Source: a bacterium HR37 (GTDB lineage Bacteria > Desulfobacterota_D > UBA1144 > Nemesobacterales > CSP1-2). From it: a stretch of 64,000 nucleotides of DNA. The position numbers and the translations under genes are program-made. Each line of letters begins with the position of its first letter. Within the stretch, counting starts at the first letter, position 1. Under the pieces are notes generated by a model, which did not search any database, was not told the DNA's origin, and worked only from the letters and a program-made list of their open reading frames with translations. This document shows, piece after piece, positions 1 to 1,628 of this stretch. The stretch lies in NCBI GenBank assembly GCA_002898375.1, contig BEIN01000001.1, positions 1-64,000 on the forward strand, given 5' to 3'.

Positions 1-1341
1 TGGTTGTGAAGCATCTACTGCCTCCTGAATTGTAGTGTAGTCACAACCAGATGCACAAACCGTCTTTATAACCTCACCCACACATACTATGGGAGCATCA
101 GATACTCCTGAATCAGGCTCGGAAAAAGATGGATCCGGGGTTGGGGTTGGGGTTGGAGTTGGAGTTGGCTCTGGAGCTGGAGTAGGTGTGGGAGTAGGCG
201 TAGGTGTAGGTGTAGGTGTTGGTTCCGGAGTTGGTGTAGGTGTTGGAGTAGGGGTAGGGCTTGTCTCCGTTTGTGATATAACCTCTATAACCACTGAATC
301 CAGAGCTTCTTTGCCAGCATTGTCTACAACCACAACTGTAGCCTGATAGGTTCCCGGTTCTGTATAGGTATAGGAGACCGGGTTTGAGTATGTTATCTCA
401 TCAATAATCCCATCACCGTTAAAATCCCACCTGTATTCTGTGATCTCACCATCAGGGTCGTAGGCGTTTGATTCAAATGTAACCGTAAGGGGAGAACTTC
501 CGCTTGAGGGTGTTGCCTGAAGTGCAAGTGATGGGGGTTGGTTTTGAGAGACAGTGTTTGGCAAAGTGTATTCAATGTAGAGAAGGGGTTTATTTGAAGA
601 GCTTTCCCTACTGTTAAAGTAGAGCTCTCCTCCTCCCTCTGACTTAACCGTAACCCCAAAGTTCTCTACTGCTCCATCAATCCAGTTCTGAACAAGGTTT
701 GTTACATCCCACTCAAAGTACTTATCGGTTGCTGTTACCGATATACTGTCCTCATAGAGGGAAGCTATGTTGGGTTTTGTGTTCCATACGGTTTTTTCAT
801 CCCAGGGATTCAGGTTTGCATAGACCCTTGTAGCACTATCAACCCTGAATTTGCGGTCGTATCTGCTGTAGAGCATTAGATAGGCTCTATTAATCTCGGC
901 ACCACCTGGAATCTGGGAAAGGTCAAACAGAAGAAGAACCTCTCTTCCCTTAGAGGTAGATTTAAAACGGGAGCCTCTGCGCAGGGAAAATCCAGAATCC
1001 CTTGAAGATCCTCCTCTTCCCCACTGTGAGGGTCTTTTTCCCCACCGTGTCTCTCTTGATTGCCTTCCAAAGGAATCTACACCTGCATAACCTGCCCCGG
1101 TGGTTGAGGTGGTGGTTGAGTCTGCATCTGGGTCGTATACTGCACTCAGCTTTGAGCTGCTTCCGTATGATCTTGTAGGTTTAGCCTTATCTACGTATGT
1201 ATCCATAACCGGTGTAAGGGTTATGCTCTCGGCCAGTGATGAGGCCGGATAGAGAATAAAGATTAAAATTAAAAGACATCTTGTAACTCCAGCATTGGTA
1301 TCTGAGAGTTTCCATCCCGTGGATGTGCAGTAGGTAAACAT
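1..1341 (-). CDS. Secreted surface protein (partial; C-terminus beyond window edge): signal peptide, DNRLRE domain, PKD domain, Pro-Thr linker, start of a probable beta-helix domain
   Basis: Manual minus-strand translation from ATG at 1341 after [56 protein letters not shown]...; '[42 protein letters not shown]' is PKD-like; then (PT)n; then '[17 protein letters not shown]', typical of right-handed beta-helix proteins. Frame open to base 1. Confidence 0.85.
137..260. repeat. Degenerate GGTGTT/GGAGTA-type tandem repeat encoding a (Pro-Thr)n linker on the minus strand
   Basis: Visible low-complexity repeat ggttggggttggagttgg...; minus-strand reading is [13 protein letters not shown]. Confidence 0.9.
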
Positions 1342-1348
1342 TTTGTAA

Positions 1349-1380
1349 CCTCCCTGAGGCTTTTGAAATCCACCTCAAGG
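1349..1380 (-). promoter_or_regulatory. Putative riboswitch expression platform: Shine-Dalgarno-overlapping hairpin
   Basis: Minus-strand CCTTGAGG (1373-1380) pairs with CCTCAGGG (1352-1359, one G-U), overlapping the GGAGG SD (1349-1353) of the downstream CDS. Confidence 0.6.
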
Positions 1381-1417
1381 CGGCACACTCCTACTGTTGC
1401 CATCACGGGGAGCGGCA

Positions 1418-1536
1418 CTTGAAATCCTACTTCGGCAGCCCAGCCACCATGGGTTGCTCCTACAACCTTTAGGTCTGTGGCTTTGCGTCCCACCCTTTCA
1501 GATGGTTTGCCCTTGTCGGTTAGGATTTCAAAAGCC
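1418..1536 (-). promoter_or_regulatory. Cyclic di-GMP-I (GEMM-I) riboswitch aptamer
   Basis: Minus strand: GGCTTTTGAAATCCTAACCGACAAGGGCAAACCATCTGAAAGGGTGGGACGCAAAGCCACAGACCTAAAGGTTGTAGGAGCAACCCATGGTGGCTGGGCTGCCGAAGTAGGATTTCAAG. Has the GEMM-I features: GGGCAAACC, GAAA tetraloop stem, GGGACGCAAAGCCAC, CCTAA receptor side, GGCTGGGCTGCCG, closed by an 11-bp P1. Confidence 0.93.
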
Positions 1537-1602
1537 ATACTTGGTATTTTCATGTTTGCGTAAGTCCCTACTTGCAAAACCCATGCCATCTAAAGCAGGA
1601 TA

Positions 1603-1628
1603 GAAAAAGCCCTTTAAATAAAGGGCTT
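1603..1628 (-). terminator. Intrinsic terminator (minus-strand direction)
   Basis: AAGCCCTTT-ATTT-AAAGGGCTT stem (9 bp perfect) followed by TTTTTC on the minus strand. Confidence 0.7.

What the first reader, a model, noticed from the sequence alone, without database searches (positions are those of the whole stretch)
1349..1536. c-di-GMP-I riboswitch with exactly complementary alternative arms and an SD-sequestering hairpin
Seen directly: on the minus strand the 5' P1 arm GGCTTTTGAAATCC (1523-1536) can pair with the 3' P1 arm TAGGATTTCAAG (1418-1429), closing the aptamer. It can instead pair with GGATTTCAAAAGCC (1358-1371) over 14 perfect base pairs. The second pairing is incompatible with the CCTTGAGG/CCTCAGGG hairpin overlapping the GGAGG ribosome-binding site. 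Inference: ligand-bound = P1 closed and SD partly sequestered (OFF); ligand-free = long alternative helix and SD exposed (ON). The regulated gene encodes a secreted DNRLRE-PKD-PT-linker protein, so c-di-GMP would tune a large surface protein next to an EPS operon.
Basis: partly seen in the sequence, partly recalled or inferred. Interest (0 to 1): 0.8.

Follow-up and report, generated by a model that had tools for sequence, protein, structure and literature searches.

The report
c-di-GMP riboswitch controlling a surface protein
An RNA switch that very probably senses the bacterial signal c-di-GMP sits in front of a gene for a secreted, carbohydrate-binding-type surface protein in an uncultured Dadabacteria species; the class is well known, but its off/on wiring is unusually easy to read from the sequence and is kept in a related genus.

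Summary
Rfam gives one hit in the window, c-di-GMP-I (RF01051), at 1521-1431(-), 83.1 bits against a cut-off of 35. The 5' P1 arm (1523-1536) and 1358-1371 form the only exact 14-base inverted repeat with a 20-300 base loop in the 64 kb. Folding supports the two-state model: P1 closed leaves the Shine-Dalgarno site (SD) about 20% accessible, the alternative helix about 96%. The alternative helix is favoured by about 8.6 kcal/mol when its strand is just transcribed and is near parity once the SD hairpin is out, which fits co-transcriptional control. With codons 2-10 included, equilibrium favours OFF even without ligand. A homologous leader in another genus of the same family keeps the 5' arm 14/14, the alternative strand 12/14 and the anti-SD strand 8/8, while flank and spacer diverged. 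Farther homologues of the gene keep the riboswitch, but not demonstrably the arms. Among 35 leader groups of related genomes, 7 show significant 5'-arm/SD-region complementarity (1.75 expected). This is a new member of a known kind: a translational OFF strand-exchange riboswitch that uses the 5' P1 strand. Ligand binding and regulation are untested.

The parts
1431..1521 (-). c-di-GMP-I (GEMM-I) aptamer core: P2/P3, GAAA tetraloop, G at the position taken as 'G20'
   Evidence: Rfam RF01051, 83.1 bits, full-length model 1-87
1523..1536 (-). 5' strand of P1, the switching strand (GGCTTTTGAAATCC)
   Evidence: read directly; identical 14/14 in the G001 homologue
1418..1429 (-). 3' strand of P1 (TAGGATTTCAAG), closes the aptamer in the OFF state; predicted in the ON state to pair with the anti-SD strand (AUUUCAAG/CUUGAGGU)
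1390..1396 (-). spacer CAGUAGG, predicted to pair with CCUACUG of codons 3-5 (1328-1334), extending the OFF structure
   Evidence: free and P1-constrained folds; not tested further
1373..1380 (-). anti-SD strand CCTTGAGG (5' side of the sequestering hairpin)
   Evidence: the aligned segment 1372-1379 is identical 8/8 in G001
1358..1371 (-). alternative strand GGATTTCAAAAGCC, lying in the loop and 3' side of the SD hairpin; 14 perfect pairs with the 5' P1 strand
   Evidence: 12/14 aligned identity in G001, where 13 pairs with one bulge remain possible
1352..1359 (-). 3' side of the SD-sequestering hairpin CCTCAGGG
1349..1353 (-). Shine-Dalgarno sequence GGAGG (7 nt spacer to ATG)
   Evidence: accessibility 0.20 (P1 closed) vs 0.96-0.98 (alternative helix) for transcripts ending at or before the ATG
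1..1341 (-). regulated ORF (447 aa in the window, cut by the contig end): N-terminal hydrophobic segment, CBM96/DNRLRE, PKD, Pro-Thr linker
   Evidence: start codon supported by M-x-T-Y-C shared with the G001 homologue

Best explanation
A class-I c-di-GMP riboswitch that represses translation when bound. Ligand binding locks P1 (1523-1536 with 1418-1429). The downstream copy of the P1 3' strand (1358-1371) is then left unpaired with the 5' strand, so the hairpin 1373-1380/1352-1359 forms and hides the SD. Without ligand, RNA polymerase exposes 1358-1371 before the SD; this strand captures the 5' P1 strand in a 14-bp helix, dissolves P1 and prevents the SD hairpin, and a ribosome loads before the thermodynamically stable OFF fold can re-form. 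High c-di-GMP would therefore lower synthesis of a secreted carbohydrate-binding-type protein. Shown here: sequence, aptamer match, exclusivity of the pairings, predicted energies, conservation in one other genus. Inferred: ligand, polarity in vivo, kinetic control, protein function.
For: RF01051 at 83 bits. Unique 14-bp inverted repeat. Constrained folds: ensemble dG(ALT-P1) -8.6 kcal/mol when the ALT strand is complete, -3.7 as the SD begins, +1.0 to +2.4 through the ATG; SD accessibility 0.20 vs 0.96-0.98. The same profile holds in the G001 homologue (-4.7 falling to about -0.3; 0.14 vs 0.95). G001 keeps the 5' arm 14/14, anti-SD 8/8 and ALT 12/14, while upstream (11/44) and spacer (10/31) are not conserved, and its P1 3' arm no longer matches the outer GGCTTTTG that ALT still matches. 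The cognate 5' arm raises SD accessibility from 0.21 (arm masked) to 0.67, and 0 of 16 swapped arms does as well. In 49 related leaders, 7 of 35 groups show 5'-arm/SD-region complementarity at p<0.05 (binomial p=0.0015; 6 of 34 without the window's group, p=0.006). The genome has 4 GGDEF matches and 1 PilZ match.
Against: With roughly 20 or more nt of coding sequence included, the OFF fold is favoured by 5-8 kcal/mol without ligand, so an equilibrium two-state switch would sit OFF. Of the other DNRLRE homologues with c-di-GMP-I leaders (L089, L062, L045, L078), none shows significant alternative pairing (p 0.25-0.93). The accessibility test without forcing ALT does not support L101. No probing or expression data.
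Confidence: 0.75

Rival explanations
1. P1 and the SD hairpin form and c-di-GMP represses, but the 5'-strand/ALT helix is only a transient folding intermediate; relief of repression comes mainly from opening of the SD hairpin by other means.
For: OFF fold favoured 5-8 kcal/mol once codons are included; distant homologues keep the riboswitch without detectable ALT pairing.
Against: Perfect 14 bp, retained in another genus where P1 no longer uses the outer half; ALT favoured by 8.6 kcal/mol at the right transcript length.
Confidence: 0.13
2. Repression acts partly or mainly at transcription, for example Rho-dependent termination on the untranslated OFF mRNA.
For: Coupling of translational riboswitches with Rho is known (cited in PMC10907184); an untranslated leader could be a Rho target.
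Against: No intrinsic terminator between aptamer and ATG; all switching geometry converges on the SD.
Confidence: 0.06
3. The aptamer senses a related dinucleotide (3',3'-cGAMP) rather than c-di-GMP.
For: A GEMM-I aptamer with the G20A change binds 3',3'-cGAMP (discussed in PMC6274999).
Against: The position aligned to G20 is G here (the mapping of Vc2 numbering is from my knowledge); GGDEF and PilZ proteins are encoded.
Confidence: 0.04
4. The 14-bp complementarity is a chance or duplication relic of the P1 3' strand.
For: ALT resembles the P1 3' strand (shared GGATTTCAA).
Against: ALT matches the 5' strand better than the P1 3' strand does (AAAAGCC vs AAGTGCC); only such repeat in 64 kb; retained in G001.
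Confidence: 0.02

Closest known systems
Vc2 c-di-GMP-I riboswitch of V. cholerae tfoY
   Same: Class-I aptamer; bound state restricts translation (PMC7371385); P1 is the switching element (PMC9262584, citing Inuzuka 2018)
   Different: Different gene and, as far as I could check, a different platform; here the 5' P1 strand has an explicit 14-nt partner in the SD hairpin; the target is a surface protein, not a regulator. The original Vc2 platform paper was not readable here
Cd1 c-di-GMP-I riboswitch of C. difficile
   Same: OFF switch by strand exchange around P1 with co-transcriptional timing (PMC9262584)
   Different: Cd1 acts on a transcription terminator and its competing fold uses the 3' P1 strand (A with T); here the SD is controlled and the 5' P1 strand is captured
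Bc1 c-di-GMP-I riboswitch of B. thuringiensis mcpE
   Same: Ligand-bound form traps RBS and AUG (PMC11218506)
   Different: Bc1 also has a dual terminator; none found here
Vc1 c-di-GMP-I riboswitch of V. cholerae gbpA
   Same: Controls a secreted protein (GbpA, which binds carbohydrate by general knowledge)
   Different: Vc1-dependent expression falls when c-di-GMP is lowered, and no anti-SD or terminator was found there (PMC4744006)

Membership tests
c-di-GMP-I riboswitch (RF01051) | Covariance-model match above gathering score | tested here: met
   83.1 vs 35 bits, model 1-87 complete
c-di-GMP-I riboswitch (RF01051) | P2 with GAAA tetraloop and P3 with tetraloop receptor | tested here: met
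   CUGAAAGG and CCUAAAGG...CCCAUGG align to the consensus
c-di-GMP-I riboswitch (RF01051) | P1 closing helix | tested here: met
   12-bp P1 plus GGC/GCC extension in the MFE
c-di-GMP-I riboswitch (RF01051) | G at position 20 (c-di-GMP rather than cGAMP type) | tested here: met
   G in the alignment; assignment of Vc2 numbering from own knowledge
c-di-GMP-I riboswitch (RF01051) | Binds c-di-GMP | not testable with these tools
   needs in-line probing or ITC
Strand-exchange translational riboswitch | Switching strand shared by two mutually exclusive helices, one of which leaves the SD hidden | tested here: met
   (prediction only)
Strand-exchange translational riboswitch | Alternative helices conserved by covariation | tested here: inconclusive
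   conserved in one other genus without clean compensatory changes; not detectable in four distant homologues of the gene; recurrent complementarity in 7/35 leader groups
Strand-exchange translational riboswitch | Ligand-dependent change of expression | not testable with these tools
   needs reporter fusions

The most novel reading that the evidence does not exclude
Dadabacteria c-di-GMP-I riboswitches commonly use a distinct expression platform in which the loop of an SD-sequestering hairpin carries a mimic of the P1 3' strand that captures the 5' P1 strand: a kinetic OFF switch built on the opposite P1 strand from the Cd1 example, used across a regulon of surface and envelope proteins.
Probability: 0.35. 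Interest if true: 0.45.

Novelty: new member of a known kind. Interest (0 to 1): 0.33.

Why it matters
It gives a clean, testable example of how a c-di-GMP riboswitch may control translation by strand exchange, a process whose details are described as poorly understood (PMC10907184). It also links c-di-GMP to a conserved secreted protein family in an uncultured lineage: c-di-GMP-I leaders precede homologues of the same kind of gene in five other genera of the order. The outer part of the 5' arm (GGCTTTTG) pairs mostly in the ON state, so the two states can be separated by mutation.

Tried and rejected
Intrinsic terminator between aptamer and gene: none found. Tandem or second aptamer upstream, prompted by GGGACTTACGCAAA near 1555-1570: no Rfam hit even at E 0.1. 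A general two-strand duplex score with long loops was too noisy and was replaced by a local pairing score with swap and shuffle controls; the swap control is weakened because P1 arms share CCTAACC-like sequence. The shuffle test has low power: P1 itself reaches p<0.05 in only 6 of 49 leaders. Search for the regulated protein in genome contigs with the single sequence found nothing; with an alignment it gave two same-order genomes and otherwise distant DNRLRE proteins. The chance/duplication explanation was considered and rejected on the better match of ALT to the 5' arm and its conservation. Other leaders with apparent hairpin-loop mimics by eye (L065, L039, L059) were not counted as support because they miss significance.

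Full report
Observation. One Rfam family matches the whole 64-kb window: c-di-GMP-I, RF01051, at 1521-1431 minus, 83.1 bits (cut-off 35), covering the complete model. The pair 1523-1536 / 1358-1371 is the only exact 14-base inverted repeat with a 20-300-base loop in the window, and its local pairing score beats all 1000 dinucleotide shuffles of the SD-proximal leader (p=0.001).

Anatomy on the minus strand, 5' to 3': 5' P1 strand (1536-1523), aptamer (1521-1431), 3' P1 strand (1429-1418), spacer, anti-SD strand CCTTGAGG (1380-1373), alternative strand GGATTTCAAAAGCC (1371-1358), whose last bases begin the hairpin's 3' side CCTCAGGG (1359-1352), SD GGAGG (1353-1349), ATG 1341. The unconstrained fold has P1 closed and the SD in the hairpin, z = -3.4 against shuffles.

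Mechanism by computation. Forcing P1 or the alternative helix at successive transcript ends gives ensemble dG(ALT minus P1) of -8.6 kcal/mol just after the alternative strand, -3.7 when the hairpin's 3' side is out, +1.0 when the SD is out, +2.4 at the ATG, between -1.3 and +1.8 over the next few codons, and +5 to +8 when codons up to about the tenth are included. SD accessibility at the ATG is 0.20 with P1 and 0.96 with the alternative helix. When more coding sequence is present, the SD in the ALT state can pair with codons and accessibility falls to about 0.35-0.5. In the ALT state the freed 3' P1 strand is predicted to pair with the anti-SD strand (AUUUCAAG/CUUGAGGU), a second contribution to SD release. 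The simplest reading is a kinetic OFF switch: ligand must hold P1 before the alternative strand is made. This is inference; no kinetics were run.

Conservation. The best homologue is in another genus of the same family (G001, contig 68; locus L101). Segment identities: 5' arm 14/14, segment 1372-1379 8/8, alternative strand 12/14, aptamer core 3' part 14/15, against 11/44 just upstream and 10/31 in the spacer. In G001 the P1 3' strand no longer matches the outer GGCTTTTG, but the alternative strand still does, so that outer half appears to be kept for the alternative helix. The G001 leader shows the same energy crossover (-4.7, then -0.3 at the ATG, then +4.8 with codons) and SD accessibilities (0.14 vs 0.95). 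Changes between the two leaders are a one-base deletion in ALT and one-sided changes in the SD hairpin; none is a clean compensatory double change.

Wider set. RF01051 was found in 21 of 61 genomes searched, in all six other genomes of the family and in none of the 14 same-class genomes outside the order. Leaders were fetched, and 49 with a start codon within 135 nt were testable. In 35 similarity groups, 7 have 5'-arm complementarity in the SD region at p<0.05 (expected 1.75; binomial p=0.0015; without the window's group 6/34, p=0.006). Independently, the cognate 5' arm ranks in the top two of 17 against 16 swapped arms for SD accessibility in 13 of 49 leaders (5.8 expected), though that count is not corrected for relatedness and includes some leaders where the difference is negligible. 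L079, L103, L077 and the L049/L050/L066/L082 group behave like the window; many others do not.

Regulated gene and surroundings. The ORF encodes CBM96/DNRLRE (PF24517, E 6e-27), a PKD domain and a Pro-Thr linker; it runs off the contig end. Homologues in five other genera of the order (G001, G003, G019, G008, G035) also have c-di-GMP-I leaders, so the riboswitch-gene link is conserved. A further match in G004 covers only the PKD part. Divergently transcribed are a PqqD-like protein, a nucleotidyltransferase, a polysaccharide export protein and a Wzz/GNVR/AAA protein. Record titles of same-order genomes (contigs of identical length to G003:C662 and G035:C3) name a Desulfobacterota bacterium and Candidatus Dadabacteria UBA2774, so the window is assigned to Ca. 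Dadabacteria by inference. The genome has four GGDEF matches and one PilZ match.

Comparison. [quoted passage not shown] Vc2 is a translational OFF switch in which P1 is decisive (PMC7371385, PMC9262584). In Cd1 the competing fold uses the 3' P1 strand (PMC9262584). Strand exchange with a switching sequence most often in the first helix is the commonest binary-switch mechanism (PMC10907184). The present element is therefore a new member of a known kind; the capture of the 5' P1 strand is a variation I did not find described, but the subscription literature was not searchable. One paper in the library mentions both Dadabacteria and riboswitches (not read) and none mentions DNRLRE with riboswitches.

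Verdict. Observation confirmed; interpretation supported in silico with the kinetic qualification. Interest is moderate: clean and testable, but ordinary in kind.

Noticed in passing
G000:C3:102452-102553(+) = L065; G000:C22:5874-5960(-) = L097: Two further c-di-GMP-I riboswitches in the same genome. The C22 copy lies 1.4 kb from the genome's only PilZ-domain match (C22:7337-7633).
   Followed up: partly
L034, L035, L036, L038, L044, L057: In another family of the order, c-di-GMP-I leaders precede a gene that by eye resembles a PilZ-like N-terminus fused to an aminotransferase-class protein, possibly a c-di-GMP receptor under c-di-GMP control; domains were not checked by search.
   Followed up: no
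window 1604-1628 (-): AAGCCCTTTATTTAAAGGGCTTTTT, a terminator-like hairpin on the minus strand just upstream of the riboswitch, with no minus-strand ORF just upstream that it could serve (the simple terminator scan did not list it).
   Followed up: no
window 1555-1578: Imperfect palindrome TTTGCAAGTAGGGACTTACGCAAA just upstream of the riboswitch, perhaps an operator or promoter element; not conserved in G001.
   Followed up: partly
window 1328-1335 and 1390-1396: Codons 3-5 (ACCTACTG) are identical in the G001 homologue and are predicted to pair with the leader spacer in the OFF fold in both, with different partners, so coding sequence may be part of the switch.
   Followed up: partly
window 1: The window starts at the contig end, so the regulated gene is cut; the G001 homologue is an 868-aa open frame.
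   Followed up: no
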